64,000 nucleotides of DNA, from NCBI GenBank assembly GCA_001899635.1, contig MKVQ01000048.1, forward strand, positions 620,001 through 684,000, read 5' to 3'. Shown here one piece after another: positions 8,490-64,000 of the stretch. The notes beneath the pieces were generated by a model. The model saw nothing but the letters and a program-made list of their open reading frames with translations, made no database searches and was not told the origin of the DNA. Source of the stretch: Myxococcales bacterium 68-20. Lineage in GTDB: Bacteria; Myxococcota_A; Polyangia; Polyangiales; Polyangiaceae. Position numbers and translations under genes: made by a program. The stretch's first letter is position 1. Each line of letters opens with the position of its first letter.

Positions 8490-10265
8490 CTACTTCGTCA
8501 CGAGCGGCGCCGTGACGAGCTTTCGTGTGGCCATTCCGCTCGGATACGCGTAGCTGGCGAAGGCATCCATCCCCCACAACGTCGCGGTGAACGCGCCCTC
8601 GCTCCGCAGGTGATGGGCTCCGTAGTAACAGAGCTTGCCGTCGCTCTTCAGGCCTGGCCTGCGGCGGTCCGAGAGAGTGACACGCGTAAACTCGTATTCG
8701 CCGCGCGTGCCGACCGGACGAAATCCCGAGACGGGACCACCAAGGCACTCGAGGATGACGTCTTTGAACTCGCCGCCCGTCTTCGCCCGCACGATCACGA
8801 GTGACGTCTCCGCGTACGTCGGATCGGCGAAGAAGCTTGCCGAGCTGAGATACTGGCCCGCGGCTACCACGTTGACGAACTCCGGGTCGCCCAGGCCGTT
8901 GTAGTCTCGGGCGTTGCCCAAGTAGTCGAAGCCGGCGCTGGTCATGTGGGCGGACAGGTAGATCGGATGCTCAGCGTCTTGCGTGCGAACCACGAACGCG
9001 TCCCCGACACCGGCGGCGAACGGGACCATCTCGCCGGCGTTCAGCTCGAGCGGCGCTCCGACCGGGACCTCCGGATCGTAGTCGAGACGCGTCCCGTCCC
9101 GCGCGGCCATGATGCGGTATGGCATGACCTCGTGCTCGTTACCGACGCGCGGGCGATAGCCGACGCCGACGTATTCGGACCCCCACTGTTCGTAGGCGGG
9201 GATCTGCTGGTTCGCGATATCGCACGGCCCGCGATAGGCCGGGACGTTCATGCAGGAGTGCACGCCGAAGGTGCTCGTCGGCTTCGTCGACGTGACGAAG
9301 CTGCCCGTGAGCTCCTCGTTCTGGGCGAACTGCAGAAACTGCCCCTTCTTGAGGCGATACGTGGCCGGCGTCCCGGCGCGCGCGCCCATGACTCCAACTC
9401 CGTCTTGGATGTCGCGCTTTGGAACGATCGTCACGTCGGTGTCGTCCTCCGAAGCCACGATCTGCACACCAGCCGGAGCGAGCACGGCCGAGCTCCAAGC
9501 ATTAATCAGGAGATTCTCCTTCGCCCACGTTGCGACCGGCAGGAGGAGAGTTGCCGTGGGCATCTCGGTGCTCCCCCCGCCGAACGGGAAGATCGTCGCC
9601 GCGCTGACCGGGGCGCTCGTCTTCAGGTGGAAGGACGACCCGAACAGGGTCGTTTTCGGATTGAAGTCGTAGTACAGCGCGGCCTCGACTCCCGGCGGAC
9701 ATGGATAGTGACCAAACGATCCGGGCGAGGTCTTCGAGGCGGGGTCGTCCGAGACGAAGAGGACCACGCCCTCCCCCGGCGAAACGGGCCCACTGTGCCG
9801 GGTCAACGTCGCGGCGCCTGACTCCGTACGATAAACCGACTTCGAAATATCGAGCATCTGCCCTTCGTACTCGAGCTCGACATCCACGGGCACCGTAGAG
9901 GTATTGACGATGTAGGCCGCATAGCAGCTCTGCGCCTTGTTGAGCGCGGAGAGGAGCGGCGACTGAAGATAGAACTCGCAACCGTTCGAGCTCCCTTCGG
10001 CGGCTGCGGCGGCGCACTGCGGCTGGCATCGTCCACCGCCACACGCGAGGTCGGTCGGACACGTCTCGACGAGCTCGTCCCGACAATTGACGACGGAGCG
10101 GCCATCGAGCGAGCATCGGTCGTCACACCTGCCCGCGTCTGCGGACGGACCGAAGTCACGCGGGGGCGGAGTGACTACGACTCGATTTTCTCCGCACGCG
10201 AGCGCGACGGAGAAGATGAGCCCGAGGACCGCGGCGGGCGCGACGCGCCGAGCACGCACGATCAT
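8490..10265 (-). CDS. cassette A: IgGFc-binding-type lipoprotein
   Basis: Last gene of cassette A: a 591-residue predicted surface lipoprotein with lipobox VALAC near residue 24. An N-terminal Cys-rich segment (CSLDGRS, then CGGGRC) leads to the GCEFY motif near residues 97-101, which begins the domain annotated as IgGFc-binding in bacteria and in FCGBP. The conserved segment ADPTYAETSLVIVR is near the end, and the tail carries a WGMD motif and a GMATRKLV end shared with cassettes B, C and D. Family membership suggests protein- or mucin-type binding at the cell surface, but no ligand can be named. It overlaps the RCC1 gene stop by 4 bases (ATGA). Confidence 0.82.
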   Translation of the reverse strand: MIVRARRVAPAAVLGLIFSVALACGENRVVVTPPPRDFGPSADAGRCDDRCSLDGRSVVNCRDELVETCPTDLACGGGRCQPQCAAAAAEGSSNGCEFYLQSPLLSALNKAQSCYAAYIVNTSTVPVDVELEYEGQMLDISKSVYRTESGAATLTRHSGPVSPGEGVVLFVSDDPASKTSPGSFGHYPCPPGVEAALYYDFNPKTTLFGSSFHLKTSAPVSAATIFPFGGGSTEMPTATLLLPVATWAKENLLINAWSSAVLAPAGVQIVASEDDTDVTIVPKRDIQDGVGVMGARAGTPATYRLKKGQFLQFAQNEELTGSFVTSTKPTSTFGVHSCMNVPAYRGPCDIANQQIPAYEQWGSEYVGVGYRPRVGNEHEVMPYRIMAARDGTRLDYDPEVPVGAPLELNAGEMVPFAAGVGDAFVVRTQDAEHPIYLSAHMTSAGFDYLGNARDYNGLGDPEFVNVVAAGQYLSSASFFADPTYAETSLVIVRAKTGGEFKDVILECLGGPVSGFRPVGTRGEYEFTRVTLSDRRRPGLKSDGKLCYYGAHHLRSEGAFTATLWGMDAFASYAYPSGMATRKLVTAPLVTK

Positions 10266-11554
10266 GGCAACCTCACTTCCACCGGCTCGAGGCTCGACCT
10301 TCTCATGATTCCGTTACCCAACTGTCCGTAGTAGTTGCTGCCGACACAGTAGATTTTGCCATTCGTCAAGAGGGCGCATGTCGCGTCGTAGGTCGTCTTC
10401 ACCCGGGCGGCGGGGACCGGAAGACCGGCAACCCTCGCCGGCCTCGCTGCGTGCTCCTTGGTGCCGTCGCCAGCCTGTCCGGAGGTGTTGTTCCCGAAGC
10501 AATACACGGAGCCCGACGCCGAGACGGCACACCATCGTGCGGGGTTGACGACCTTGCTGGGATACACGGAGCGGATGCTCTTCGTCGTGGCGACCTGCAC
10601 GACGGGCTCGGGCGTCACCACCCGCCGCGGGATCGCTCCAACGTCATCGCCCCAGCAATAGGCGTCACCACCCGCTGCGACACATGCGCGGGTCTCCGCG
10701 ACGTCTACGGCCGTGAGCCGCTCGAACATCGTGGCCCGAGGATTCGGATCGGGGGACAGCGACGACTCGCGCGCGAGGAGGAGGTTGGCTCCCCAGCTCT
10801 CGGATGCGCCGTCCTCGCGGACGATGAACGTGGCCTCGTTCACAGTGAGGTCTCGGATCGGAGCCCCGGGCCCGAGGGCGATCGCCGTCGGCGGATACAT
10901 CGCATCGGAAGGCTCGTCGCTCGTCACTTGACCGGACGCGTTCGAGCCCCAGCAAAGGACGCCACTGTCGACGAGCGCGCATGCGGTTCGATCGGACGCG
11001 CTCACTTTCTTCGCGGCCGGGATCTCGAGCCTCACGGGCTCGAGCTCCGTCGTGACGCCCGCGTCGGCGGCCCGGTACGGCCCCTTCCCCCAGCAGAAGG
11101 CGGCGCCGGCCTTGTCGACCGCGCAGGTGCGGTCGAGCGCGACGATGTCGGTGAGCCCGGGGACGCGAGTCGGCGTGGCGCTGCCGGGCGATGCCTCGCC
11201 GCGACCGAGCTGGCCTACCTGGTTGTCGCCCCAGCACGCCACCGTCCCGTCATGGAGCAGTGCGCAGAAGCTCTCGTCCTGCCCCGCCACGAGCGCCGTG
11301 GCACAGGGCGGAGACGCGCATTCGATGGGGAGGAGGCCTCCGTCGAACGGCGCGGCATCCGGGATGGAGGCCGCGTCAGCGTCTTCGTCTTCGTTCGGAC
11401 GAGAGGCGTCGAATGAGGCGTCCGGCTCGGAGGCGCCAGGGTCCGCGTCGCGTTCGCTCGAGCAGCTCGCAGATGCGATCGCTCCCGTCGCGCAGAGAAA
11501 GACCACGAGCGCTGCCGGAGGGCACCGGTCAAGGAGTCGTCTTGTGGAGTGCAT
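10262..11554 (-). CDS. cassette A: RCC1-repeat propeller lipoprotein
   Basis: A 430-residue lipoprotein (lipobox ASASC near residue 30, then an Asp/Ser-rich linker). Seven blades are marked by W-G or equivalent motifs (CWGDN, CWGKG, CWGSN, SWGAN, CWGDD, CFGNN, CVGSN), most preceded by a CAL or CA-V strand, as in the seven-bladed RCC1 fold. Such propellers mediate protein-protein contacts. The location outside the cytoplasm is predicted from the signal peptide and paired Cys. The start overlaps the preceding propeller gene by 26 bases, exactly as in cassette D, and the stop overlaps the IgGFc-type gene by ATGA. Confidence 0.85.
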   Translation of the reverse strand: MHSTRRLLDRCPPAALVVFLCATGAIASASCSSERDADPGASEPDASFDASRPNEDEDADAASIPDAAPFDGGLLPIECASPPCATALVAGQDESFCALLHDGTVACWGDNQVGQLGRGEASPGSATPTRVPGLTDIVALDRTCAVDKAGAAFCWGKGPYRAADAGVTTELEPVRLEIPAAKKVSASDRTACALVDSGVLCWGSNASGQVTSDEPSDAMYPPTAIALGPGAPIRDLTVNEATFIVREDGASESWGANLLLARESSLSPDPNPRATMFERLTAVDVAETRACVAAGGDAYCWGDDVGAIPRRVVTPEPVVQVATTKSIRSVYPSKVVNPARWCAVSASGSVYCFGNNTSGQAGDGTKEHAARPARVAGLPVPAARVKTTYDATCALLTNGKIYCVGSNYYGQLGNGIMRRSSLEPVEVRLP

Positions 11555-12812
11555 AGCCTTCTCCTACCGCCCAGAGGTTCGTGGGGGACGTACCTCGGAT
11601 TTGGGTGGGCAATTTGGTCAGCGGAGCGCCGTTCAGCACGGTCGACGAATATTGATAACTGCCGCCATCCCCGATTTCGGAACCTCGCATGACGACGCCC
11701 CACCTGGCATTTTGACCGCCTCCGGCCAACCAGAGGCGATCTGCGGACTCACTCCACGTTGCGGTCCACCGCGGCGCGCGAACAACGGCTGAGGGTACCG
11801 AGCCGACGGTCACGGAGAGGCTTTCCCCTTCCATCGTGAGCTGCGAGTACTGGTTCGGTGGCTGGAGAAGAAAGAACCTACGGCCGTCGGAGGTGTGGAA
11901 TTGCGACGAGAGTGCGTTGCTGGCCCCGCTGGGACTGGGCAGCGGCGGAGGGCCTCCATCTCGCGGCGTACACTGCCTGAATGTGGCGACGCCGTCGGCG
12001 ATCCGGTGGTACCCCTCGGGCGTCCTTCGTATCAGGATCTCACAATTGATAAAATTACCGCCAAACCGGTATCCACGGAACCACACCTCGTCCGGGCGCG
12101 TCCCGGCAGCGCCCGTGATGTAGAACACCTCGACGGGGTTGTCGGCGTCATCGACCGTGTGCTCCGGGACCCAGCCGAGCGCGCCGCCATCTTCGCTCGC
12201 TCGGCGGAAGATGGTATTCGAACGCCAAGCATAGATATCACTACCGACTCCCCATACGCCTAGAATGAGATCCTTCGCATCTTCAGTGCGATCAGGGACG
12301 TTCTCGGGGAGCCGCTCACGGCTCCAAGACCACGCCGTTGCCGGCGGGGCGGGGCGCGTTCCGTGATAGATGGTGCCGGGGGCGGCGGCGTAATAGACCT
12401 CGTCGGCATTGGGCGACCATATCCTCGTTGCATGATCGGCGAGAGCTTCGTTCTGGCTGTTGTCGTCGATGTAGCGCCACGTGGAGTCAGCTTCGTTCCA
12501 TTCGAGTGCTCGGATGCCGAAGCTGCGGCTCTCGGCGAGCGCGAAGGCCCGACCCGGCAGCGGCCAGATGTCCTTGATCGTGAGGCCGACGTCGGGCAAC
12601 GTCGTCTCGCACCACCCGTCCGAGCTACATACGGCCCCGCGTGCTTCGACCGGCGCATCGCTCGCGACGGCCACGTCACGACCTGCACCCGCATCCGCAA
12701 GCGCCTCGTCCGGCTCTGCGTGCGGCGCTTCTGTTTCGTCGTCGGATGCTGCGCACGCGGCGATGGCCAAGAGCGCGCTCGACACACTGCCAAGAACGAG
12801 AAGGCGCCTCAT
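11529..12812 (-). CDS. cassette A: beta-propeller lipoprotein P2
   Basis: A 427-residue lipoprotein. I set the start at the ATG at 12812, which overlaps the upstream stop as ATGA and is followed directly by a signal peptide with lipobox AIAAC; the longer open frame adds an Arg-rich, unlikely N-terminus. After an acidic linker comes the P2 signature C-S-S-D-G-W-C-x-T-x-L-P. Blade-like repeats with D-I-W, D-V-W and N-L-W-A-V-G motifs follow, and the end is GYALHKTTP. It resembles BNR/two-component-type propellers without catalytic motifs. Closest relative in the window is the P2 of cassette D, by its shared start, signature and C-terminal end. Confidence 0.75.
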   Translation of the reverse strand: MRRLLVLGSVSSALLAIAACAASDDETEAPHAEPDEALADAGAGRDVAVASDAPVEARGAVCSSDGWCETTLPDVGLTIKDIWPLPGRAFALAESRSFGIRALEWNEADSTWRYIDDNSQNEALADHATRIWSPNADEVYYAAAPGTIYHGTRPAPPATAWSWSRERLPENVPDRTEDAKDLILGVWGVGSDIYAWRSNTIFRRASEDGGALGWVPEHTVDDADNPVEVFYITGAAGTRPDEVWFRGYRFGGNFINCEILIRRTPEGYHRIADGVATFRQCTPRDGGPPPLPSPSGASNALSSQFHTSDGRRFFLLQPPNQYSQLTMEGESLSVTVGSVPSAVVRAPRWTATWSESADRLWLAGGGQNARWGVVMRGSEIGDGGSYQYSSTVLNGAPLTKLPTQIRGTSPTNLWAVGEGYALHKTTP

Positions 12813-14122
12813 GGCTTTCCTCCGAGAGATAGAAGCACTCCGTCTCCGCCGACCCAGACGTGCCCCGGTCCGGCGGTCCATACCGTCGTGAGATCGGGGC
12901 GACGCGAGCCGAGCCCACCGATCTTCATCCGCGACCAGCGAGTCCCGTCGTAGTGGAGGACGATGGCGTCATTGCCGACGGCCCAGACGTCGGAAGAAGA
13001 CGAGCCCCAAACGGCATTGAGCTGCGCTGTCGTAGGGATGTCGGCAACGGGCTCCCAGACGGCGGGATCGCCGACGTAGTGCCGTATGGTCCCAGCGAAT
13101 CCGACCGCCCAGGCATCGGACTCGGAAGCGGCCCACACCCCGTAAAGCGCGTTCCGTGTTTGACTGTCGTACAGCTTGAAGCTCGGCGAATCGCCATCCG
13201 CGTTGGTCACGCGCATGGCGACGCCGTTCATTCCCACCGCCCACACCTCCTCCGCCGAGGCGCCGTGCATGCCGGCGAACGTGACCGAGTGCGTTTTTGC
13301 GACGTTGCCTTCGAACGTCTTCGAGGGGGTTACTCGCAGGCGGGCGAGGCCTCCCATGTTCGAGCCTGCACTTGTCCGCATCGTCGCCAACCAGAGCCAC
13401 TCGGCCCCAGGGGCCCCCCAGCCGAACATCAACCGCTGCTGGCGGATGTTGTAGCCCGGGGCTGAGGCCATGGTGGGCGCGCCGTGATCCGTCCAGCCGT
13501 CGACGGAAGCGCCTGCGTCGACGCCCGGGTCGACGTAGTTTCGTGCGAACACGCGGTCGAGCCCCCCGACCCCGACTTCGTATCCGTCGCGAAGCCAGAG
13601 CGCCGCTATCGTGGGCAAGCGTCCGAGTGGCGATTCGACAGCGACGGGAAGTTGCGAAGGGCGCCACGACGTGCCGTCGAAGTGAGCGAGCGTTCCGAGC
13701 GAGCCGAGCGCCCACACGTCGCTTGGCGAGCGGCCACGCACGAGATGGATGCGCGTCCGCGGATCCAGCTGCCCCGGCTCCGCTACGGGCTTCGTCGAAT
13801 CGACGAGCCCGTTCGGACAGAGAACATCCTCGGAGCAGGTCTCCAGGTAGTACTCGCAATCGACCGTGCAGGGCGGGGCAGCGTCGAGCGGCGCGCCGGA
13901 ATCGCTCTCAGGCACCGGTGCGGGCGGCGGCTCGGATGGGCCGGCAGGCGCGACCTCGTAGGTGGCGCATGCGCCCAGCCACGCCGGCGAGCCCGTCGCG
14001 AGGACCGCTGCCGTCGCAACAGCGAACCGGAGTGGACGAAGTCCAGCTTCGCTGGACGGAGGCCGCGAAGGAACAGGCGGATTCGGCGAAGGCCGAGCCG
14101 GATCGAGCTTGCATGCCCTCAT
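12809..14122 (-). CDS. cassette A: beta-propeller lipoprotein P1 with extended N-terminus
   Basis: This 437-residue protein has the P1 signature C-x-x-D-CEY-x-x-ETC-x-x-DVLCPNG, followed by R-T-R-I-x-x-x-R-G-R-S and a series of S-D-V-W-A-x-G blades (at least six), ending with HVWVGGDGVLLSLGGK. The hydrophobic segment and lipobox (WLGAC) come about 35 residues later than in the C and D homologues. The Pro/Ser/Arg-rich extension contains a 17-base perfect hairpin. No ATG or GTG was found just upstream of the hydrophobic segment, so the coupled ATG at 14122 (ATGA overlap) is kept. The role is a predicted surface interaction module. Confidence 0.75.
   Translation of the reverse strand: MRACKLDPARPSPNPPVPSRPPSSEAGLRPLRFAVATAAVLATGSPAWLGACATYEVAPAGPSEPPPAPVPESDSGAPLDAAPPCTVDCEYYLETCSEDVLCPNGLVDSTKPVAEPGQLDPRTRIHLVRGRSPSDVWALGSLGTLAHFDGTSWRPSQLPVAVESPLGRLPTIAALWLRDGYEVGVGGLDRVFARNYVDPGVDAGASVDGWTDHGAPTMASAPGYNIRQQRLMFGWGAPGAEWLWLATMRTSAGSNMGGLARLRVTPSKTFEGNVAKTHSVTFAGMHGASAEEVWAVGMNGVAMRVTNADGDSPSFKLYDSQTRNALYGVWAASESDAWAVGFAGTIRHYVGDPAVWEPVADIPTTAQLNAVWGSSSSDVWAVGNDAIVLHYDGTRWSRMKIGGLGSRRPDLTTVWTAGPGHVWVGGDGVLLSLGGKP
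14041..14057. repeat. 7-bp perfect hairpin inside the P1 N-terminal extension
   Basis: GTCCAGC and GCTGGAC flank TTC. The element falls exactly in the N-terminal extension that separates this P1 gene from its C and D homologues, so it may mark a small insertion. Confidence 0.3.
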
Positions 14123-15321
14123 CGCGCTTCCTCCCCGTCATCGCACGGTTCGACGACGCAGCGGCCGCCGGCGCACGCCTGCCCGGCCGCAACATCGCAG
14201 GTGATCCCGCAGCCTCCGCAGTTCTGCGGGTCGCTGAAGGTGTCCACCTCGCAGTTGTCGTCCAGGTTGCCGTTGCAGTCGGCCCATCGTCCGAAACAAT
14301 CGAGTTTGCACGTACCGGACGAGCAGACCGGAAGGCTACGTTCCGACGATCCGGGGCAGACTCGCCCGCAGCCACCGCAGTTCTGCAGATCGGAAGCGAA
14401 ATCGACGCAATTGCCGATGAAGGGCTCGGTAGTCGTGACTCCGCAGAAGCTGAGGCCGGGCGCGCAGCCGCACACTATACTCGGCGGAAAGAGATTCTGT
14501 ATGCAGTTCATGCCGTTCGCACGACAGTCGTCGCCACAAAGGCTGCAGTTGGCGTGCGTTCCGAGCTTCGTCTCGCATCCGTCGGAGCCCGGCATCCCGA
14601 GGTCCGCATTGCAGTCGGCAAAGTTATCGCGGCACTTGAGGTTCCCGCATCGCGAGCCGACGCATCCGTATTTTGCATTCGGCGGAAGGGGAGGAGCCCC
14701 CACGGGTCCGTTGGGGTCGCATTCGTTTCCGCATGCTCCGCAGTGCTTGTCGGAGACGTCGACGTTGGCGCAGGTGAACTGATCAAGCGTCTCGCCCGGG
14801 CAATACGTGTACCCGTCTTGACAGCCGCACCTGGGCAGAGGCTCATTTGGATACTTGATACACGGAAACCCATCGTCGCACCTATCTCCGCACGCGCGAC
14901 AGTTGTCGCTCGAGCCGAGACGCACCTCGCAACCGTTGTCGACGAGTCCGTCGCAATCCTCATAACCGCGTAGGCACCTCAGCACGCAGCGACCTTCGAT
15001 ACAGTCGAAGGCCTCGGATTCGGTCTTGGCAGGGCACGCCGCGCCGCACGCGCCGCAGTTCAACGGATCCGATCTGAAGTCCACGTCGCAGACAAACTGC
15101 GATGTCGAGCACGTCGTATATCCCGTCGGACACTTGTCCGAGGGGCAATAGTCCGTGAGCGTTCTCTCGACTGTCCCTGCCTCCGGCGTCGCGAAGGGAG
15201 CCGGAGGATCCGTGCAGAAGCCGGCATCGCAGTCGGAGCCGATGACCATGTCGGACGTCGCACACGCGGTGACGACGACGATCATGGCGAAAGACACGGT
15301 GATCGAAGCGGCAGCCTTCAT
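14119..15321 (-). CDS. cassette A: Cys-rich lipoprotein (six CxxC-xxx-C modules)
   Basis: A 400-residue lipoprotein (lipobox VTAC). After a short linker it opens with YCPSDKCP, then six modules of the form [NH]C-x-x-C-G-x-x-C (NCGACGAAC, NCRACGDRC, HCGACGNEC, NCSLCGDDC, NCGGCGRVC, NCGGCGITC). These are interleaved with three GCE-type motifs near D-C-x-x-x-x-x-D. The end is GQACAGGRCVVEPC. Regular Cys spacing suggests an extended disulfide-bonded rod outside the cytoplasm. Proteins of this composition are sometimes misnamed tryptophan synthase alpha chain; no TIM-barrel or catalytic features are visible. Both ends overlap the neighbours by ATGA. Confidence 0.82.
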   Translation of the reverse strand: MKAAASITVSFAMIVVVTACATSDMVIGSDCDAGFCTDPPAPFATPEAGTVERTLTDYCPSDKCPTGYTTCSTSQFVCDVDFRSDPLNCGACGAACPAKTESEAFDCIEGRCVLRCLRGYEDCDGLVDNGCEVRLGSSDNCRACGDRCDDGFPCIKYPNEPLPRCGCQDGYTYCPGETLDQFTCANVDVSDKHCGACGNECDPNGPVGAPPLPPNAKYGCVGSRCGNLKCRDNFADCNADLGMPGSDGCETKLGTHANCSLCGDDCRANGMNCIQNLFPPSIVCGCAPGLSFCGVTTTEPFIGNCVDFASDLQNCGGCGRVCPGSSERSLPVCSSGTCKLDCFGRWADCNGNLDDNCEVDTFSDPQNCGGCGITCDVAAGQACAGGRCVVEPCDDGEEAR

Positions 15322-16043
15322 GGCGTCTCCGTGGTGGTCGTCGGCGCCCCGGCACAGCTCATCACGACGCGGCGCGCGAGCGGGTCCGAGCCGCGGTTCT
15401 GGAGGAATGCCCGTCCCTCACGCACCGCTTGGTCGACGCGCCCTGCATGGCAGAGGACCACGATGCGTTCGGCGATCCGCTCGTCCTTGAGCACCCCGTC
15501 AGGGAACTCCCTCGAGTGCTCGTCGAGGAACGAGAGCGCGCGTGCGTCTTCGCCTCGCCGGAAAGCGCTCTCCGCCTCCGCGAGGAGGCGCGCTTCGCGG
15601 GCGAGCGTGTCGTCGCTAAGTGAAGGCTTGGAAGGCCCAGCCGCCCTGATCCTCCCGGCGGGCCCGGCGGGTGGATTCGCTCGCGGCGTCGCCTGCGGCA
15701 GAGAATCGACCGAGACGACGGGGACGCCGATCGGATCTGCGCTCGCGATCTCGATCTTCTCATCGACCATCGCAGGCGGCGAAGCCGGTGAAGCCGTCAC
15801 ATCGGCCGCAGGGCTCTCCCTCGAATGGATCGCAACAACGCCGGCGGCGAGGAGCGCGACGCAGGAGAGGCCGCCCCACCACGCGATGCGCGGCGTCGCC
15901 GAAGGAGAGGCGGCGCTCGTCGAGCCGGCCGCGAGGGTCGCGTCGATCTTGGCCGACAGGCGCTCGAAGTCCGCCTGTGACGGCTTGTATCGCGTCGCGA
16001 TCGGCGCAAGAAGCGATTTGCCCTTGGGAGGTTCTTGGCTCAC
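15318..16043 (-). CDS. cassette A: one-pass membrane protein in anti-sigma position, TPR-like periplasmic end
   Basis: I chose the GTG at 16043 (241 residues) because it gives a 4-base GTGA overlap with the sigma stop, matching the other cassettes; an ATG 12 bases upstream is the alternative. The cytoplasmic N-terminus is ~53 residues, a TM helix spans 54-73, and a Pro-rich linker carries V-S-V-D-S-L-P at 110-116. The C-terminal ~90 residues are helical and TPR-like (AESAFRRGEDARALSFLDEH, then FPDG). No HxxxCxxC zinc anti-sigma motif is present. Position and topology suggest it binds and holds the sigma factor at the membrane, which is inference. Confidence 0.72.
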   Translation of the reverse strand: MSQEPPKGKSLLAPIATRYKPSQADFERLSAKIDATLAAGSTSAASPSATPRIAWWGGLSCVALLAAGVVAIHSRESPAADVTASPASPPAMVDEKIEIASADPIGVPVVSVDSLPQATPRANPPAGPAGRIRAAGPSKPSLSDDTLAREARLLAEAESAFRRGEDARALSFLDEHSREFPDGVLKDERIAERIVVLCHAGRVDQAVREGRAFLQNRGSDPLARRVVMSCAGAPTTTTETP

Positions 16044-16633
16044 TTGAGTCTCCAACGGTCACGTGCTGTTTGCCGCTCCAGGCTCGTCGCGACGTGCTCA
16101 CGCGCGAGCCGCAGCCGGCTCCTCGCGGTGTAGATGTTGATGCCGAGGATCTCTGCGACCTCGGTCACGGGTCTCTCTTCGATCTCCGTCAGGACGAGGA
16201 CGGCCCGTTGCTCAGGGTTCAGCTTGTCCAGGATCGCCTCGAGGCGCCGAGCGTCTTGCTCGGCCTCGGCAATGCGATCGGGGCCATGTGCGCTCGACTC
16301 GGGTACCGTCTCGAAGCTCGCCTCCGAGTCCCAGCCGCTCGTCCAGCGTCGAGAGGACCGCTTGTGCCGTTGCGTGACGCGGTAGAGGATGGAGAAGAGC
16401 CAGCCTCGTATCGAGCCTCGGTGCTCGTATTCGTTCATGAGCCGGTGGACGGTCAAGAACGTCTCCTGGACGACGTCGTCGACCTCCTCCGCGCGGACTC
16501 CGAGCCGGTGCGCGCTCTGCCAGACGTATTCGAACTGCGTACGGTAGAGCTCTACGAAGACCGCCGCGCGATCTTCGTGCGTGCGCTCGCCGGGACCGTC
16601 GTACTCGAGCGAAGCAGGCGAAAGCACGCGCAT
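16040..16633 (-). CDS. cassette A: ECF-family RNA polymerase sigma factor
   Basis: A 197-residue sigma-70 family factor with only regions 2 and 4. Region 2 has DDVVQETF near 52-59 and the W-L-F-S-I-L-Y-R core near 78-85. Region 4 has a helix-turn-helix at 156-179 with recognition-helix residues I-Y-T-A-R-S-R-L-R-L-A-R. The AAAGGGAGGG ribosome-binding sequence touches the ATG at 16633, but it is 6-7 bases from a GTG at 16627, which may be the true start. It lies 48 bases after the lead gene and overlaps the next gene by GTGA. It likely directs transcription of its own cassette. Confidence 0.92.
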   Translation of the reverse strand: MRVLSPASLEYDGPGERTHEDRAAVFVELYRTQFEYVWQSAHRLGVRAEEVDDVVQETFLTVHRLMNEYEHRGSIRGWLFSILYRVTQRHKRSSRRWTSGWDSEASFETVPESSAHGPDRIAEAEQDARRLEAILDKLNPEQRAVLVLTEIEERPVTEVAEILGINIYTARSRLRLAREHVATSLERQTARDRWRLK

Positions 16634-16681
16634 CCCTCCCTTTAACTTCAGGTGGCGCGTCGAACGGTCACTCGAAGTGGG

Positions 16682-17719
<1,038 letters not shown>

Positions 17720-17775
17720 CCCCGGAGTATCGCATCATGTCGCTTCGAATCTTGCGGTCTCTTTCCTCGTCGAGC

Positions 17776-24578: not shown

Positions 24579-24581
24579 CGC

Positions 24582-25933: not shown

Positions 25934-25962
25934 GAAAAATGACGAAAGGGTCCGGTGGGTGC

Positions 25963-28445: not shown

Positions 28446-28472
28446 AAATAGTGGGACAAAAACCTGGTCGAG

Positions 28473-28486
28473 GTGGATTCATCCAC
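28473..28486. promoter_or_regulatory. inverted repeat abutting the sigma C start codon
   Basis: GTGGAT and ATCCAC flank TC, and the repeat ends at the base before the ATG. It overlaps the likely AGGTGG ribosome-binding sequence, so an RNA hairpin here could limit translation of the sigma gene. No matching element was seen before the other sigma genes. Confidence 0.35.
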
Positions 28487-35504: not shown

Positions 35505-35520
35505 ATTCGTTTCAAAGTCG

Positions 35521-48770: not shown

Positions 48771-48845
48771 CCCATCGTCGTGAACCGCGATCTCTCCGCG
48801 CCGATCACGAAAACGTCATCGGCGATGAAGGTCGTCGAGCCCACG

Positions 48846-51755: not shown

Positions 51756-51906
51756 GAGTTGCGTTGGAGAACAGAGCTGACGATCTAGCTCGAGGTTCGT
51801 TCATGTAGCACCGTCGAGGTCCGTCGCGCGTCGCATGTCGACGCGCGACGGAAGACGAGTTGCACGAGCTTTCGCCCGGAGCCCGCCTCGCTAGATTTTG
51901 TCGACG

Positions 51907-55266
<3,360 letters not shown>

Positions 55267-59182: not shown

Positions 59183-59752
59183 ATGGCCGAACGAACGGTG
59201 GCCCTGACGGCCACGGAAGTGGAGACCGAACGGCCATTGCGCGCGGAGTTCCGCGCGATCTTCCGCGCTCACTTTCGGTACGTCTGCGTCACTCTCCGGC
59301 GCCTCGGCGTCCGCGACGCCGACCTCGAGGACGTCGCGCAGGAGGTCTTCGTCCTCATCTATCGGAAGCTCCCCTCGTACGACCGCGCGCGGCCAGTCCA
59401 GCTCTGGATCGTAGGCATCTGCTTCCGGTCGGCATCTGCCTACCGGCGCCTCGCGCGCCATCGTCGCCTCGACTTCGACCGCGACGACGCCGACGTCGAG
59501 CACACCGACTTGCTGCCCGACGACCAGCTTGCCGTCGAGCAAAACCGCCGCCTCGCGCTCGCCGCGCTCGACCACCTCGACGCCGACCGCCGCGAGCTCC
59601 TCATCATGCACGACCTCAATGACATTCCGGCTTCGCAGATTGCCGAGATGCTCTCCATTCCCACCAATACCGTTTATTCGCGCCTTCGCCTCGCGCGAGA
59701 GGACTTCCGCAAAGTCGTGCAAAACCTCCGCGGGGCTCGAGGTCTACGATGA
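59183..59752 (+). CDS. cassette E: ECF-family RNA polymerase sigma factor
   Basis: A 189-residue ECF sigma factor. Region 2 has EDVAQEVFVLIYRKL at 49-63. Region 4 has a helix-turn-helix at 150-174 with recognition helix T-N-T-V-Y-S-R-L-R-L-A-R. It is the first gene of cassette E. Its stop overlaps the next gene as ATGA. It keeps the A-type L-R-L-A-R end of the recognition helix rather than L-R-R-A-R as in B, C and D. Confidence 0.92.
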   Translation: MAERTVALTATEVETERPLRAEFRAIFRAHFRYVCVTLRRLGVRDADLEDVAQEVFVLIYRKLPSYDRARPVQLWIVGICFRSASAYRRLARHRRLDFDRDDADVEHTDLLPDDQLAVEQNRRLALAALDHLDADRRELLIMHDLNDIPASQIAEMLSIPTNTVYSRLRLAREDFRKVVQNLRGARGLR

Positions 59753-60441
59753 GGGATCCCGACCAGCTCGACTCCGACCTCCGGGTCCTCTTCGATGCCG
59801 TGAAGACGCACGACGAGATCGATGCCGCGTTCGACGACGCCGCTCGCGAGCGGATGCTCTCCCGCGTCGAGCGCGTGGCGCACGGCCCCTCGAGCGCCGG
59901 GCGCGGATTCTTCGGACGCCGTGGAGTGATCATCGTCTCCGTCGGCCTACTCGCGATTCTCGCCGCCTCTCGCTTCCCGAGCGAACGCAGAACGGCCGCG
60001 CCGACGTCGCCAACGCCGAGCGCTACGCAGTTGCCGTCCGGCTCGGCTGCCGTCGTCCCGGTCCTCTCCGTCGATGATTTGCCTTCGTCTGCTCCGCCGC
60101 CTGCGACCAGCACGCCTGCAGTCGCCGTAAGCACGGCCTCGGCCCGTGCACCGGGCAGTGGGCTCGCTGAGGAATACCGTTTGGTCGAGGGCGCCCGCGC
60201 GAAGCTCGCCGCGAACGACTACGCCGGTGCGCTCCAATCGATCCGAGCGCACGAGGCGCGCTTTCCCCGCGGTCAGCTCAATCAGGAATGCGAGAGCCTG
60301 CATATCCAGCTGCTCGTCGAGACCGGCCGGATCGTGGAAGCGCGTGAGCGCGCAAACGGCTTTCGTGCACGGTTTCCCAATGGCCTGCTGCTGCCCTCCG
60401 TCGCGCACGCGATCGCTACCGATCCCGGCATGGCGCCCTGA
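59749..60441 (+). CDS. cassette E: one-pass membrane protein in anti-sigma position, TPR-like end
   Basis: A 230-residue protein (ATGA overlap with sigma). The cytoplasmic N-terminus is ~57 residues (L-D-S-D-L-R-V-L-F-D), a TM helix spans 58-75, and L-S-V-D-D-L-P lies at 106-112. The TPR-like C-terminus has ARAKLAANDYAGALQSIRAH, RFPRGQ and a second pair. Its last ~22 codons are part of a tandem duplication, so the end may not be ancestral. The next gene starts 96 bases later instead of overlapping. Confidence 0.73.
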   Translation: MRDPDQLDSDLRVLFDAVKTHDEIDAAFDDAARERMLSRVERVAHGPSSAGRGFFGRRGVIIVSVGLLAILAASRFPSERRTAAPTSPTPSATQLPSGSAAVVPVLSVDDLPSSAPPPATSTPAVAVSTASARAPGSGLAEEYRLVEGARAKLAANDYAGALQSIRAHEARFPRGQLNQECESLHIQLLVETGRIVEARERANGFRARFPNGLLLPSVAHAIATDPGMAP

Positions 60442-60519: not shown

Positions 60520-60537
60520 CGACCATCAGGTAATCTC

Positions 60538-61740
60538 ATGTCTCCGAACATCCATCGTTCGCTGTTTGTCACAGCTGTGTTCGCAGCAACCGTCGCGTGC
60601 GCCTCCGCGAGCGGATGTGCAAAGCCTGTTCTGCTCATAGGAACACCTATCGAAGACGCGTCGGCGTCGAGCCCGGGCTTCACACCTCCGGAGGAAGACG
60701 GAGGTTCGAGCGGCCAGCCCGTGCCAACCGTCCCGATGTGCGTGGCGACGGAGTGCCCGCATCCATATGCGACTTGCGCCAGGGCCGGTGGCTTCCCTCC
60801 CTACCAATGCGAAACAAACCTTCTTATCGACGACAGCAACTGCGGCGCATGCGAAAACGCCTGCCCAAGCGCGAGCAGCTTCCCCGAGCTCAACATGGAG
60901 ACGCACTGCATTGACGGCACGTGCCACCCCGCTTGCTCCCTCGAGCATATTGACTGCAACAAACTAGCCGATGACGGCTGCGAAATCGACGTACGAAATG
61001 ACCCAGAGAACTGCGGAGCGTGCGGCAACAAGTGCCCTGAAGTCACGCACGGAGTAAGGAGATGCGTTCAAAAACAATGCACCGGCGAGTGCTCGCCTCC
61101 GAACACGTGGTGCGCTCCGGACATATGCACCGACCTCATGAACGACAAATTCAACTGCGGAGCGTGCGGGAACATGTGTCCACCAACGCCGCCCGACGCA
61201 GGACCACCTCCGCCGCAGATGAAGTACGTCTGCGAACAAGGCGAGTGCGGACATCTCATCTGCGAAAATAACTGGGCGGACTGCAACAACAACATCGACT
61301 TGGACGGCTGCGAGGCCGACATTAGCTCCGACCCGAAGAACTGCGGCGCTTGCGGGAAGGCGTGTGCGCCGGGCCAGCCTTGCATCTTCCGCCCCGAGGC
61401 CTACGCGTACGAATGCGGCTGCCGATCAAACGAGACATCGTGCAACGGCGTCTGCATCGATCTGCTATCGGACATCTACAACTGTGGAGCATGCGGAAAT
61501 ATCTGCCCTACTCCCGCCAACGGCGTCGCCAGCTGCAATAAGGGCTTTTGCGAAGATTCGTGCCTACCCAGTTGGGGCGACTGCGACAACGACAGTCGCA
61601 ATGGGTGCGAAACGAACCTATTGGTCGATGCGCGACACTGCGGGGGATGCGGAACGCCATGTGACACGGCCGCTGGCCAGCCTTGCATCAATGGCAGGTG
61701 CCTCATGGTCGAGTGTGACGCTGGATTGGTAACAAAATGA
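60538..61740 (+). CDS. cassette E: Cys-rich lipoprotein (six CxxC-xxx-C modules)
   Basis: A 400-residue exported protein with a signal peptide; the processing Cys is near residue 27 (SASGC). It opens with MCVATECPHP. The six modules are NCGACENAC, NCGACGNKC, NCGACGNMC, NCGACGKAC, NCGACGNIC and HCGGCGTPC, with three GCE motifs. The end is GQPCINGRCLMVEC. Base composition is less GC-rich than in its neighbours, with more A and T at third positions, as in the cassette C copy. It follows the tandem duplication at 96 bases from the previous stop and overlaps P1 as ATGA. Confidence 0.82.
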   Translation: MSPNIHRSLFVTAVFAATVACASASGCAKPVLLIGTPIEDASASSPGFTPPEEDGGSSGQPVPTVPMCVATECPHPYATCARAGGFPPYQCETNLLIDDSNCGACENACPSASSFPELNMETHCIDGTCHPACSLEHIDCNKLADDGCEIDVRNDPENCGACGNKCPEVTHGVRRCVQKQCTGECSPPNTWCAPDICTDLMNDKFNCGACGNMCPPTPPDAGPPPPQMKYVCEQGECGHLICENNWADCNNNIDLDGCEADISSDPKNCGACGKACAPGQPCIFRPEAYAYECGCRSNETSCNGVCIDLLSDIYNCGACGNICPTPANGVASCNKGFCEDSCLPSWGDCDNDSRNGCETNLLVDARHCGGCGTPCDTAAGQPCINGRCLMVECDAGLVTK

Positions 61741-62966
61741 GACATCTCAGCCAGCCTCATAGCTCTTCTGCATCCTGGGCGGCGGCGCTGCTTGGGTTCC
61801 TGACACTCGAGATGGTCATCACGAGCTGCGCGGGCTCCGAGAACGACGTGGGTGCGCGAGAAAGCGACACGGATGGCGGGTCGGCAAGCGACGCCACCGC
61901 CGACGCGAACGACGGTGCGTGTGAAGGTGATTGCGATGCCTGCGGAAGCTCGGACGGCCTCCCGTGCAGCGACGTCGAGTGGACCGTCGTCAACACGAAT
62001 CACCCTGGAGGGGTCGGGCTCTCCAGCGTCTGGGGAAGTGGCCCCAACGACGTCTGGGCCGTGGGGGCGGCCGGCAGCGCGATCCATTGGGACGGCAAGG
62101 ATTGGACGCCCGTGCCAGTCGCGACCGGTTGGTCGCTCCAGGCGATCTGGGGCACCGGCCCGAACGATGTCTGGACCGTAAGCTCTCCGAACCTGATCTT
62201 CCACACCACCGGGTTCGCAAACGGCACCGCGCAATGGTCTCCTGTGACGCCCATCTGGGACAGCTCCAACTCGAGCGACCAGGGACGCCGCTTGTTGCGC
62301 ACGATATGGGGAACATCGCCAAACGACATATGGATCGGTGGAGATTCCTCGCTCGAGCGACCACCTTCATATGTCCGCGAGTCCGGATGGAGGAGCATCA
62401 TCACGGATGGCGGCACGGGCTGGGCGCCAATAAGCATCTTTGCCAACCATCAAATCAAGGCCATATGGGGAAGCGGACCCGGCGACATTTGGCTAGTGGG
62501 ATCGCAGGGGATCGGAATCTCGTTCGCCGCGCATACGAACGGCGTGGCAGCGGCAGATGGCGGCCTCCCTGTATGGACCGAGATCGATACGCAGTCGCTC
62601 CCGATCCTCCATGCGGTCTGGGGCAGTGGTCCCGGCGACGTGTGGACCGTCGGTGACTACGGGACGATTCGACACTTCGTTGCGGGCGCCGAAGTGTGGA
62701 GCGTCGTCGACTCTCCCACGACCGAGAGTCTTCGCGGTCTCTGGGGCGCGGGACCGGATGACATCTGGGCCGTCGGCGAAAACGGCACGATCTTGCACTA
62801 TGACGGGACAGCGTGGAGAACCTCGACGGGAGCGTTTCCGCCCGGAAAGAAGCCTCATCTCTTCAGCGTTTGGGGCAGCGGGCCATCCGACGTCTGGGCT
62901 GTCGGTAGCGGAGTCGTCCTGCACTTCTCCGGTTCCAAATCCGGCGCACGAGGAGCGAACCGATGA
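61737..62966 (+). CDS. cassette E: beta-propeller lipoprotein P1
   Basis: A 409-residue lipoprotein with lipobox ITSC after a long hydrophobic segment. A Ser/Ala/Asp linker leads to C-E-G-D-C-D-A-C and a propeller whose blades read W-G-S-G-P-N-D-V-W-A-V-G / HWDGKDW, W-G-T-G-P-N-D-V-W, W-G-T-S-P-N-D-I-W, W-G-S-G-P-G-D-I-W and similar, seven in all by my count. It is most like the P1 of cassette B, not the CEY-x-x-ETC type of A, C and D. ATGA overlaps both neighbours. Confidence 0.78.
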   Translation: MRHLSQPHSSSASWAAALLGFLTLEMVITSCAGSENDVGARESDTDGGSASDATADANDGACEGDCDACGSSDGLPCSDVEWTVVNTNHPGGVGLSSVWGSGPNDVWAVGAAGSAIHWDGKDWTPVPVATGWSLQAIWGTGPNDVWTVSSPNLIFHTTGFANGTAQWSPVTPIWDSSNSSDQGRRLLRTIWGTSPNDIWIGGDSSLERPPSYVRESGWRSIITDGGTGWAPISIFANHQIKAIWGSGPGDIWLVGSQGIGISFAAHTNGVAAADGGLPVWTEIDTQSLPILHAVWGSGPGDVWTVGDYGTIRHFVAGAEVWSVVDSPTTESLRGLWGAGPDDIWAVGENGTILHYDGTAWRTSTGAFPPGKKPHLFSVWGSGPSDVWAVGSGVVLHFSGSKSGARGANR

Positions 62967-64000
62967 ACGCTCGGAATGTGGGAGCCATCGCTGTTTCGGC
63001 ATCGCTCGTTCTCGTCGCCATGGCGTGCAGCAATGGGAGCGTGACGGAAGAAGGAGGCGCACCGGACGCCGGCTCTTCGACGCCGATCCCTGCGGAGGCT
63101 GGCGGCCCGTCCGCAGAGCCACCGGACGCGAGCGACGCGTCCAGAGATGCCGACGCTGCCGAGCGCGTGTGTACGGACGAAGGCTGGTGCCATACTGTGG
63201 TTCCGGACGCTCAAACGCTTCGTAGCGTATGGAGTGATGGTCAGGGGAGCGCTTGGGCCGTCACCGAGCAAGGCAACATTCTTCGATGGGACGGCACTGC
63301 GTGGGTGCAGAGCCACGCCGCCGGAGTACCCCTTTACGCCGTCTGGGGTAGCAGTCCCACGGATCTCTGGGCCGGCGGAGGAGCCCCGACGACAGGCGAC
63401 CAGGCCTCTCCAGGTACGCTCCTGCATGGGACTGGCCCGAGCCCGAGCACGATTGCCTGGGAAGCCGTGGCGGCTCCGGCGGCCGTTCGTTCGATTTGGG
63501 GAACGAGCGCGACGGACGTCTGGGCTATAGCGTCCGTCCCCGAGAGGTTCCGCACCGATGATCCGAGCTTCGTCCTTCACTACTCCGGTCCGGCAGGTGC
63601 GGGTGATGCGGGATCGGAGTGGAAGGTCGATCCCGTTTCGAACGAGTTCCCCTCCTACTTTCAGAAGGCCTGGGGAACGAGCAAGGACGATATTTGGGTC
63701 ACTGGCCGTGTTGCCGGCGATTTCGACTCCGTACAAGGGCGTCTCTATCACCGCCGTCCGGACGGCGAAGGCGGCTTCGTTTGGCGCATCGATCAGCCCA
63801 CGCCGTTGAACGATTGGACTCCGATCCCTGCCGTCCTGGACGGTATTTCCGTTTCACCGAGCATGGTGTTCCTCATCCAGCTCAGCAGCTACTCCGGTGA
63901 TCTGTTGTATCACAAGGGCATCAGCAACGACGACGGTGCCACATTCACCTGGACGGAGCGGCCCACGTCCGAGACGGGCTTCACCTACAACGCTGTCTCG
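62963..64000 (+). CDS. cassette E: beta-propeller lipoprotein P2 (3' end outside window)
   Basis: The frame runs from an ATGA overlap at 62963 off the end of the window, giving 346 residues so far. Lipobox AMAC, then a Pro/Asp/Ala/Ser linker. The P2 signature C-T-D-E-G-W-C-H-T-V-V-P is followed by blades L-R-S-V-W-S-D-G, HILRWDGTAW-type, W-G-S-S-P-T-D-L-W-A-G-G, W-G-T-S-A-T-D-V-W-A and W-G-T-S-K-D-D-I-W. By analogy the RCC1 and IgGFc-type genes should follow outside the window. Confidence 0.8.
   Translation, partial: MNARNVGAIAVSASLVLVAMACSNGSVTEEGGAPDAGSSTPIPAEAGGPSAEPPDASDASRDADAAERVCTDEGWCHTVVPDAQTLRSVWSDGQGSAWAVTEQGNILRWDGTAWVQSHAAGVPLYAVWGSSPTDLWAGGGAPTTGDQASPGTLLHGTGPSPSTIAWEAVAAPAAVRSIWGTSATDVWAIASVPERFRTDDPSFVLHYSGPAGAGDAGSEWKVDPVSNEFPSYFQKAWGTSKDDIWVTGRVAGDFDSVQGRLYHRRPDGEGGFVWRIDQPTPLNDWTPIPAVLDGISVSPSMVFLIQLSSYSGDLLYHKGISNDDGATFTWTERPTSETGFTYNAVS

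What the first reader, a model, noticed from the sequence alone, without database searches (positions are those of the whole stretch)
8490..64000. Five paralogous sigma / membrane-regulator / surface-lipoprotein operons in 55 kb
Cassettes A (8490-17719), B (17893-27132), C (27387-35396), D (40573-49889) and E (59183 onward) repeat one gene order: exported two-Cys lead protein, ECF sigma, one-pass TPR-like membrane protein, six-module Cys-rich lipoprotein, one or two propeller lipoproteins, RCC1 lipoprotein, IgGFc-type lipoprotein. The repetition and order are seen directly. ECF sigma factors are usually controlled by a co-encoded membrane anti-sigma protein. That each cassette is a self-contained signalling unit controlling its own surface coat is inference. 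I know no characterised system with this composition.
Basis: partly seen in the sequence, partly recalled or inferred. Interest (0 to 1): 0.88.

Follow-up and report, generated by a model that had tools for sequence, protein, structure and literature searches.

The report
Mix-and-match surface-protein operons with sigma switches
A bacterium related to Labilithrix carries well over a hundred diverged copies of one operon, in which a sensor-and-switch part and a set of surface proteins appear to have been re-paired repeatedly during evolution, which could change which signal calls up which surface.

Summary
The five cassettes are real but a small sample. In DNA fetched from the same 11.9 Mb genome I found 133 units; 125 have ECF sigma and one-pass TPR genes directly upstream (one search counted 123; one search added two that my script had split). 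They span 1.18 Mb, about 10% of the genome.

The main finding is modularity. Over 95 complete units, lead, sigma and TPR protein diverge together (distance-matrix r 0.72-0.75), and so do the five lipoproteins (0.87-0.95), but the two halves are almost unrelated (0.02-0.11). Bodies 80-85% identical sit behind heads 22-33% identical. The switch lies inside the Cys-rich gene, after the lipobox. A second genome shows the same split; 12 of 17 of its units still match one unit here with both halves, and one is a clear swap.

Heads occur across Myxococcota; at E 1e-30 the Cys-rich body gene was found only in this genus (8 of 58 genomes).

Predicted folds: lead = periplasmic domain plus 8-stranded outer-membrane barrel; TPR protein = short cytoplasmic helices, membrane helix, BamD-like domain. 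I read this as FecA/FecR/FecI-like signalling; that is inference.

The parts
16682..17719 (-). Cassette A head: LEAD (signal peptide, 2-Cys periplasmic domain, Pro linker, OM barrel)
   Evidence: fold by homology to cassette C LEAD
16040..16633 (-). Cassette A head: ECF sigma factor (SIG)
   Evidence: its cassette D homologue hits PF08281/PF04542, TIGR02937
15318..16055 (-). Cassette A head: one-pass membrane protein with C-terminal TPR (TM), putative anti-sigma
   Evidence: fold by homology to cassette C TM
14119..15321 (-). Cassette A: six-module Cys-rich lipoprotein (CYS); N-terminus belongs to head, rest to body
12809..14041 (-). Cassette A body: propeller lipoprotein 1 (start uncertain)
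11529..12812 (-). Cassette A body: propeller lipoprotein 2
10262..11554 (-). Cassette A body: RCC1-repeat lipoprotein
8490..10265 (-). Cassette A body: IgGFc_binding lipoprotein
25963..27132 (-). Cassette B head: LEAD
25313..25897 (-). Cassette B head: ECF sigma (start uncertain, up to 25933)
24582..25313 (-). Cassette B head: TM/TPR protein; start overlaps the sigma stop
23373..24578 (-). Cassette B: Cys-rich lipoprotein
22129..23376 (-). Cassette B body: propeller 1
20912..22132 (-). Cassette B body: propeller 2
19641..20915 (-). Cassette B body: RCC1
17893..19644 (-). Cassette B body: IgGFc_binding
27387..28445 (+). Cassette C head: LEAD (AlphaFold model: periplasmic domain 32-127, barrel 177-351)
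28487..29083 (+). Cassette C head: ECF sigma
29080..29787 (+). Cassette C head: TM/TPR protein (AlphaFold model)
29784..31025 (+). Cassette C: Cys-rich lipoprotein
31022..32224 (+). Cassette C body: the only propeller of this cassette
32221..33579 (+). Cassette C body: RCC1
33576..35396 (+). Cassette C body: IgGFc_binding
48846..49889 (-). Cassette D head: LEAD
48798..48813 (-). Promoter-like motif TTTTCGTGATCGGCGC between LEAD stop and sigma start (candidate, untested)
48147..48770 (-). Cassette D head: ECF sigma
47437..48150 (-). Cassette D head: TM/TPR protein
46214..47440 (-). Cassette D: Cys-rich lipoprotein (PF04885 24.9 bits; NF041328 below cut-off)
47273..47317 (-). Approximate head/body junction inside cassette D CYS (alignment columns 31-45, after the lipobox); placed by eye from the genome-wide windows
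45009..46217 (-). Cassette D body: propeller 1
43708..45012 (-). Cassette D body: propeller 2
42366..43733 (-). Cassette D body: RCC1 (PF13540 91 bits)
40573..42369 (-). Cassette D body: IgGFc_binding (PF17517 329 bits)
59183..59752 (+). Cassette E head: ECF sigma (no LEAD in front; LEAD is the last gene, L002:7854-8900)
59749..60441 (+). Cassette E head: TM/TPR protein
60538..61740 (+). Cassette E: Cys-rich lipoprotein
61737..62966 (+). Cassette E body: propeller 1
62963..64000 (+). Cassette E body: propeller 2 (runs past the window; RCC1, IgGFc and LEAD follow in L002)

Best explanation
Each cassette is two modules joined. The head (LEAD, ECF sigma, TM/TPR protein, plus the signal peptide and tether of the first lipoprotein) is an old Myxococcota cell-surface signalling device. 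LEAD is an outer-membrane barrel with a periplasmic domain; TM is an anti-sigma factor with short cytoplasmic helices, one membrane helix and a periplasmic TPR domain; a signal at the outer membrane passes from LEAD to TM and frees the sigma, which transcribes its own operon. The body is a five-lipoprotein surface complex (Cys-rich, two propellers, RCC1, IgGFc). In one Labilithrix-related lineage the body came to stand behind more than 120 heads, and bodies have been moved or overwritten between heads by recombination whose tracts start inside the Cys-rich gene, after the lipobox, and end at the IgGFc stop codon. Stimulus and coat are therefore re-paired over evolution. Shown: copy number, gene order, co-divergence within modules, near-independence between modules, junction position, exchange since the split from a second species. 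Predicted: folds. Inferred: anti-sigma role, LEAD-TM contact, sigma autoregulation, surface location, function of the coat.
For: Copy number and order. Modules: Mantel r 0.72-0.75 within head, 0.87-0.95 within body, 0.02-0.11 for the 15 head-body comparisons, of which one (CYS-SIG, 0.11 against a maximum of 0.09 in 999 permutations) exceeds its permutations; n=95. Nearest-neighbour agreement 43-50 of 95 within head, 41-57 within body, 2-6 across; 0 of 30 body pairs under 0.30 distance have heads under 0.60. DNA, 11 pairs chosen for close bodies: 9 show one main block of 6829-6979 columns, 78.5-87.9% identical; 2 are broken in two; all start 92-202 bases into the CYS domain, and 10 end within 15 bases of the IgGFc stop (u33/u127 runs 86 past it; u36/u133 has a further 1 kb match downstream). 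Junction: CYS columns 1-30 track head (0.27 vs 0.01), columns 46-75 body (0.77 vs 0.06); signal peptide r 0.181 and tether r 0.141 with head exceed all 999 permutations, the rest (0.013) does not. Rates: in five orthologous units of G003 (L216, L220, L224, L228, L229) bodies are 71-92% and heads 68-92% identical, so pairs with 80-85% bodies and 22-33% heads are not explained by fast heads. Replicate: G003 within head 0.68-0.78, within body 0.71-0.91, across 0.23, n=17; swap L217. Head as a device: LEAD-SIG-TM in 21 and SIG-TM in 6 of 30 loci from 6 other genera. Folds. Motif before sigma.
Against: No functional data. TM has no Pfam anti-sigma domain and its Foldseek matches are weak (best E 4.3e-3). 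The promoter-like core TTTCGTGA is in only 10 and GTGATC in 21 of 109 regions. In G003 the head-body correlation is low but above chance (14 of 999 permutations reach it); close heads share fairly close bodies more than chance (5 of 14 pairs vs 0.7 expected); 12 of 17 second-species units keep their pairing: pairings are partly inherited. In L158 and L181 lead and TPR protein (52-57%) lag behind the body (66-78%), so heads do evolve somewhat faster in places. Heads cluster by genus more than in any of 200 permutations (18 changes vs minimum 23), so the heads too have expanded within the genus. Five of 133 bodies have no head nearby and three have one on the other strand. My lipobox pattern was met in 110 of 133 CYS and only 68 IgGFc genes.
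Confidence: 0.6

Rival explanations
1. Fixed cassettes: each cassette is an old co-inherited unit and head-body disagreement comes only from heads evolving much faster than bodies.
For: 12 of 17 G003 cassettes match one G000 cassette with both halves; lead and TPR protein are somewhat faster than bodies in L158 and L181; tight gene spacing suggests single operons.
Against: In five orthologous cassettes heads and bodies diverge alike, yet bodies 80-85% identical here have heads 22-33% identical; close heads also occur with distant bodies; L217 keeps an orthologous head with a different body.
Confidence: 0.06
2. Concerted evolution: cassette positions are fixed, and bodies, being alike enough to recombine, are homogenised by gene conversion between copies, above all neighbours; heads are too diverged to recombine. 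No selection for re-pairing is needed.
For: Neighbouring cassettes (15 pairs under 15 kb) have alike bodies (mean distance 0.445 vs 0.614; 0 of 2000 permutations) but not clearly alike heads (0.697 vs 0.721; 6% of permutations); L214 keeps its head orthologue while its body is nearer to two other units.
Against: Alike bodies also lie on different contigs and match as whole blocks of about 6.9 kb in 9 of 11 pairs; every head clade with 3 or more members carries 2 or more body clades, though two clades (10 of 12, 14 of 17) mostly carry the commonest one.
Confidence: 0.3
3. The TM protein is not an anti-sigma factor but a BamD-like factor helping to assemble LEAD or the lipoproteins, and the sigma is controlled otherwise.
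For: BamD is the best Foldseek match and YbgF TPR is among the first eleven; the profile hits a BamD at E 3.9e-4 and PF13525 YfiO matches 5 of 20 members.
Against: It is a one-pass protein with a short helical N-terminus encoded directly after sigma, and co-diverges with sigma (r 0.72), as ECF/anti-sigma pairs do.
Confidence: 0.2
4. The body is a mobile element that inserts behind heads.
For: Sharp ends; heads without bodies and bodies without heads; body presence only weakly tied to the head tree (13 changes vs permuted mean 14.4, 55 of 500 permutations as low; 10 vs 11.7, 16 of 500, if heads beside a sigma-less body count as body-bearing).
Against: The 5' end is inside a gene and in frame; no convincing shared motif after the IgGFc stop was found. 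Mobility genes were not searched for.
Confidence: 0.05

Closest known systems
FecA/FecR/FecI-type cell-surface signalling (PMC9249621: abstract and sections 10 and 13 read)
   Same: OM barrel with extra N-terminal periplasmic domain; one-pass regulator with a short helical cytoplasmic part and a periplasmic C-terminus; ECF sigma; adjacent genes.
   Different: 8-stranded OmpA-like barrel instead of a TonB-dependent receptor; TPR domain instead of a FecR domain; no FecR, Plug, STN or TonB-receptor Pfam match in 18 LEAD and 20 TM proteins at E 0.1; output is a lipoprotein set, not iron transport.
Bacteroides ECF/anti-sigma polysaccharide-utilisation loci (PMC3878776: passages read; it reports 26 sigma/anti-sigma systems in B. 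thetaiotaomicron)
   Same: Many parallel ECF/anti-sigma loci each next to its own surface-protein set.
   Different: No SusC/SusD and no recognised enzyme in the cassette scanned; about five times as many copies; heads and bodies exchanged.
sigma-E/RseA envelope stress response (recalled)
   Same: Membrane anti-sigma with a periplasmic part that could watch the state of outer-membrane proteins; here a BamD-like domain.
   Different: More than 120 parallel copies with private output genes; no RseA/RseB match in the Pfam scans.
Antigenic-variation repertoires (recalled)
   Same: Large genome share given to paralogous surface sets that recombine as cassettes.
   Different: Nearly every set carries its own regulator; a silent archive plus single expression site was not shown.

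Membership tests
ECF sigma factors | Sigma70 regions 2 and 4 only | tested here: met
   PF04542 32 bits, PF08281 47 bits, TIGR02937 6.9e-22 for cassette D
FecA/FecR/FecI cell-surface signalling | OM barrel with N-terminal periplasmic domain beside sigma and one-pass regulator | tested here: met
   predicted fold; gene order
FecA/FecR/FecI cell-surface signalling | TonB-dependent receptor barrel and plug | tested here: not met
   8-stranded barrel predicted; no such Pfam match in 18 LEAD members
FecA/FecR/FecI cell-surface signalling | STN signalling domain | tested here: inconclusive
   no Pfam match; the N-terminal domain was not searched alone as a fold
FecA/FecR/FecI cell-surface signalling | FecR domain in the regulator | tested here: not met
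   TPR fold predicted; no FecR match in 20 members
FecA/FecR/FecI cell-surface signalling | Regulated proteolysis by Prc/RseP frees sigma | not testable with these tools
   needs experiment
Membrane anti-sigma factors | Cytoplasmic helical domain that binds sigma | tested here: inconclusive
   three short helices before the membrane helix; co-divergence with sigma; no domain match
Bacteroides SusCD loci | SusC/SusD pair | tested here: not met
   no such match for eight cassette D and two cassette C proteins
IgGFc_binding (PF17517) | curated score | tested here: met
   cassette D: 329 bits vs 25.6
RCC1 repeats | curated score | tested here: met
   cassette D: PF13540 91 bits vs 22
Stig1 (PF04885) | curated score | tested here: met
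   cassette D: 24.9 bits vs 24.1, marginal, one protein scanned
MXAN_6577-like cysteine-rich (NF041328) | curated score 100 | tested here: not met
   cassette D: 65.6 bits
Antigenic-variation cassette system | silent copies and an expression site | not tested
   no expression data; 125 of 133 bodies have their own head upstream
Known anti-phage defence systems | PADLOC model match | tested here: not met
   0 of 8 proteins of cassette D at E 0.01

The most novel reading that the evidence does not exclude
A combinatorial surface-identity system: more than 120 private sensor-sigma switches and as many five-part lipoprotein coats, re-paired by recombination at a fixed junction inside the first coat gene, so that evolution keeps rewiring which stimulus (prey, neighbour, phage or surface) calls up which coat. 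The head-specific tether at the start of the first lipoprotein could be the piece that couples any coat to its own barrel and anti-sigma, for instance by threading through or docking on LEAD.
Probability: 0.3. Interest if true: 0.93.

Novelty: new variant of a known kind. Interest (0 to 1): 0.86.

Why it matters
About a tenth of a large bacterial genome is one operon type, and its regulatory and surface halves have largely separate histories. That gives a natural experiment on how sigma/anti-sigma pairs stay insulated in more than a hundred parallel copies, on how promoters follow their sigmas, and on how bacteria generate surface diversity. It also offers a large set of co-diverged LEAD/sigma/TM triples for interface prediction, and a set of candidate orthogonal switches. 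It makes the vague observation that such bacteria have very many sigma genes directly testable.

Tried and rejected
Rejected: 'only five cassettes'. Rejected: duplicates from assembly (identities 22-47%). Rejected as sole cause: heads merely evolve faster. Rejected: defence system by known models. Led nowhere: a shared DNA motif after the IgGFc stop or upstream of LEAD; the motif search scored well there too, but on TCGA-rich patterns and against a mononucleotide shuffle only, so I do not use it; the same weak control applies to the motif before sigma, for which I rely on the counts instead. A wider motif run found mainly the coding end of LEAD. A strict tether motif C-x(2-8)-[VIL]x[VIL]G was met by 28 of 110 CYS lipoboxes against 5 of 182 propeller, 1 of 113 RCC1 and 0 of 68 IgGFc ones; suggestive only. 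No solved-structure relatives by sequence for IgGFc (0 at E 1) or convincingly for LEAD. The rows of the VIA table span the barrel (model residues 175-352); no statement on the LEAD N-terminal fold follows.

Annotation pitfalls: the first two unit callings lost many sigma genes because over-long TM reading frames overlapped them; one search corrects this but still cut two cassettes in two, found on checking. therefore used 17 body-less own heads of which two were mislabelled (15 changes vs permuted mean 16.3); one search repeats the test with corrected labels and the result is weaker than I first took it to be. Rows dropped: 98 of the 133 units are complete, and 3 of these with one propeller were left out of the 95-unit matrices; cassette C is evidently one of them. 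Five regions of 145 were not fetched (four long CYS hits on C49 and C51, one contig-end piece on C52). Profile searches score at most 150 candidates in one genome and far fewer per genome when many are searched (48, 32 and 13), so counts there are lower bounds and absences are not firm.

Literature: nine searches (two of them returned no paper). I saw titles and abstract starts of the listings, abstract and sections 10 and 13 of PMC9249621, and passages of PMC3878776 and PMC9239204. None of these described this cassette; the ECF re-classification paper was not held, so an ECF group number could not be assigned.
Full report
Observation. The window is contig C48:620001-684000 of an 11.9 Mb, 52-contig genome. 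Translation of the open frames confirms the five cassettes. Alignments of five copies each show true but distant paralogues. Outside the window, cassette E runs on to a second propeller, RCC1, IgGFc and, last, a lead-type gene, and another cassette lies upstream at C48:595873-604026, followed by a different barrel-type gene. Pfam and NCBIfam name the sigma (PF08281, PF04542, TIGR02937), RCC1 and IgGFc_binding (PF17517, 329 bits); the Cys-rich protein only just reaches PF04885 Stig1 and stays under the NF041328 cut-off; lead, TPR protein and propellers have no family above cut-off in the ten proteins scanned.

Scale. Profiles of the TPR protein and the Cys-rich protein gave 141 and 145 places in the whole genome; 124 of the 145 Cys-rich places follow a TPR-protein place within 1.5 kb on the same strand. 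I fetched 140 of 145 planned regions plus the contig end around the window, 2.07 Mb after merging, and annotated them with profiles built from the proteins of the window and the contig end. 133 units hold a Cys-rich gene, 123 have sigma and TPR gene in front, 116 have sigma, TPR, Cys-rich and IgGFc, 102 have the lead first and 4 last, and 83 have the exact full order. Their spans add up to 1.18 Mb, about 10% of the genome. On checking, two of the ten sigma-less units and two of the 17 sigma/TPR units without a body turned out to be two cassettes cut in half by my script, so 125 of 133 bodies have a head in front; two more bodies stand back to back with a head on the other strand, one tail to tail with a short sigma/TPR match, and five have no head nearby.

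Two modules. For 95 units with lead, sigma, TPR, Cys-rich, two propellers, RCC1 and IgGFc I compared protein distance matrices. Lead, sigma and TPR agree (r 0.72-0.75), the five lipoproteins agree (0.87-0.95), and the 15 head-body comparisons lie between 0.02 and 0.11, with permutation maxima of 0.07-0.14; one, CYS-SIG, exceeds its own maximum (0.11 against 0.09). The closest relative by head is the closest by body in 2 of 95. Of 30 body pairs closer than 0.30, none has heads closer than 0.60; of 14 head pairs closer than 0.40, 5 have bodies closer than 0.45 against 0.7 expected, so some cassettes were probably duplicated whole. At DNA level I inspected 12 pairs, 11 chosen for close bodies and one for close heads. 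Nine of the 11 show one main match of 6829-6979 columns at 78.5-87.9% identity; u49/u119 and u36/u133 are broken in two, and u36/u133 also matches over 1 kb downstream. The matches start 92-202 bases into the CYS domain; 10 of 11 end within 15 bases of the IgGFc stop and u33/u127 runs 86 bases past it. The close-head pair (u129/u137) matches at 78% through the head to about 430 bases into the Cys-rich gene and at 67-73% in parts of the body. In the window itself A, C and D share body DNA (64-81%) starting inside the Cys-rich gene and reaching into IgGFc and show no head match; B matches neither A nor D.

Junction. In sliding windows the signal peptide and lipobox of the Cys-rich protein follow the head (0.27 against 0.01), and columns 46-75 follow the body (0.77 against 0.06), as do most later windows, some weakly (down to 0.12). 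Signal peptide and tether correlate with the head above all 999 permutations (0.181, 0.141), the rest does not (0.013). The head thus appears to own the first 30-45 codons of the first lipoprotein. In other genera and in some body-less heads here, the gene after the head is an unrelated lipoprotein with a similar start; this is an impression from reading, not a count.

Second species. Five same-genus genomes other than G003 and G006 carry 1-4 of the Cys-rich genes at E 1e-30; G003 has 40 matches and G006 12. The closest named relatives found with the IgGFc profile are Labilithrix MAGs ACE_MYX5 and ACE_MYX7; contig lengths of G003 equal those of ACE_MYX5 in seven cases. In 17 non-redundant complete units of G003/ACE_MYX5 the within-head r is 0.68-0.78, within-body 0.71-0.91, head-body 0.23 (14 of 999 permutations reach it), and nearest relatives agree in 1 of 17. 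Yet 12 of 17 match one G000 unit with both halves. Of eight with an unambiguous head orthologue (second-best head under 0.7 of the best score), six have the same unit as best body; L214's body is nearer to two other units; L217 has an orthologous head (78/85/76%) and a body only 40-50% identical to that unit's body (rank 31) but 67-79% identical to that of another. Orthologues also calibrate rates: in five of them bodies are 71-92% and heads 68-92% identical, while in L158 and L181 lead and TPR protein fall behind (52-57% against 66-78%). Bodies 80-85% identical with heads 22-33% identical inside G000 are far outside that range, so they point to exchange. An earlier, smaller comparison gave a mixed picture in the same sense: 7 of 11 units kept one partner for most genes, L145, L147 and L162 did not, L150 was split between two related units for single genes; head-body correlations among those 11, which include orthologous pairs, were 0.67-0.85.

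Spread. The TPR profile hits 51 of 58 related genomes at E 1e-6 (own included) and 36 of 188 sampled across the phylum at E 1e-10, with 13 candidates scored per genome. In 30 short loci of six other genera the lead-sigma-TPR triad is found in 21 and sigma-TPR alone in 6 more. At E 1e-30 the Cys-rich profile hits 8 of 58, all of this genus, with 32 candidates scored per genome; one weaker Cys-rich match lies beside an IgGFc gene in a groundwater MAG (L155). Of 23 loci not named Labilithrix found with the IgGFc profile none has the cassette. On a sigma tree, genus and other-genus heads change places 18 times (permuted mean 27.9, minimum 23 of 200), so heads cluster by genus to a degree but are not one clade. 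Among own heads, body or no body changes 13 times (permuted mean 14.4; 55 of 500 as low), or 10 times (11.7; 16 of 500) if heads beside a sigma-less body count as body-bearing: weakly tied to head ancestry at most. Heads are old and shared; the body expansion looks recent and local.

Anatomy and mechanism. AlphaFold on 20 sequences gives the TPR protein three short N-terminal helices (block pLDDT 68-86), a membrane helix at 57-73, a loose linker that holds the conserved VxDLP, and a C-terminal helical domain (96-98); the best Foldseek match is BamD (E 4.3e-3), with YbgF TPR near it. On 18 sequences the lead has a signal peptide, a small alpha/beta domain (32-127) with the two invariant Cys, a Pro-rich linker and a barrel of eight strands by my reading of the strand list (177-351), like Ail, OmpA, OmpX and NspA (Foldseek best E 5.8e-6; VIA Z 17.6, rmsd 2.4 over 149 residues for NspA). 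This is the layout of FecA/FecR/FecI signalling (PMC9249621) from parts not shown to be related. In partial correlations the lead N-terminal domain goes with the TPR domain (0.32) and sigma (0.34), the barrel little with either (0.08, 0.19); compatible with, not proof of, a LEAD-TPR contact. A motif around ATTTCGTGATC stands between lead stop and sigma start: TTTCGTGA in 10 of 109 regions against 0.08 expected and 0 antisense, ACGATTT in 11 against 0.27 and 0 antisense; it occurs in some head clades (8 of 15, 7 of 20, 3 of 9) and hardly in others (1 of 12, 0 of 17), and lies at 48798-48813 in cassette D. I read it as a sigma-specific promoter; untested.

What it does. No enzyme was recognised in the cassette D proteins scanned; binding or display is the likely role of the coat, and the stimulus is unknown. 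The most economical account is a signalling head that switches on its own surface complex, with bodies exchanged or overwritten between heads by homologous recombination that begins in the Cys-rich gene. Whether exchange is merely concerted evolution or is favoured because it rewires stimulus to coat cannot be told from these data. On checking, confidence in the full statement was lowered slightly (0.62 to 0.60) because the body/no-body test proved weaker than first reported.

Noticed in passing
L148 and L230 (same contig region of ACE_MYX5/G003); own units u15/u149 (C23) and u154/u75 (C44): Head and body (CYS to IgGFc) stand next to each other but on opposite strands, back to back, in two species.
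   Followed up: partly
contig C48:604131-605285 (L001:4131-5285): Last gene of the upstream cassette is exported and looks barrel-like but its N-terminal domain looks unlike LEAD; perhaps an alternative sensor (by eye).
   Followed up: no
contig C17, units u124-u127: Tandem array of cassettes; u125-u127 have alike bodies (distance 0.20-0.22) and unlike heads.
   Followed up: partly
own genome, sigma/TPR units without CYS, e.g. u22, u87, u168, u160, u142: Body-less heads are followed by other lipoproteins or by proteins with a 'DNSxSM' stretch like von Willebrand A domains; the heads may be general switches for surface proteins (by eye).
   Followed up: partly
own genome: 150 Sigma70 region 2 matches, the cap of the search, out of 250 candidates, so the total number of sigma factors may be larger.
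   Followed up: no
window 51898-55266: Very long sensory protein with what look like two histidine-kinase cores, a receiver and a GAF-like part, between cassettes D and E (domains named by eye).
   Followed up: no
window 1402-4755: Large exported protein with several Cys-rich repeats around 'DxDCGG', unlike the CYS family (by eye).
   Followed up: no
L155:16972-18441: A CYS-profile match downstream of an IgGFc gene in a groundwater deltaproteobacterial MAG, possibly a relict or precursor of the body outside the genus.
   Followed up: no
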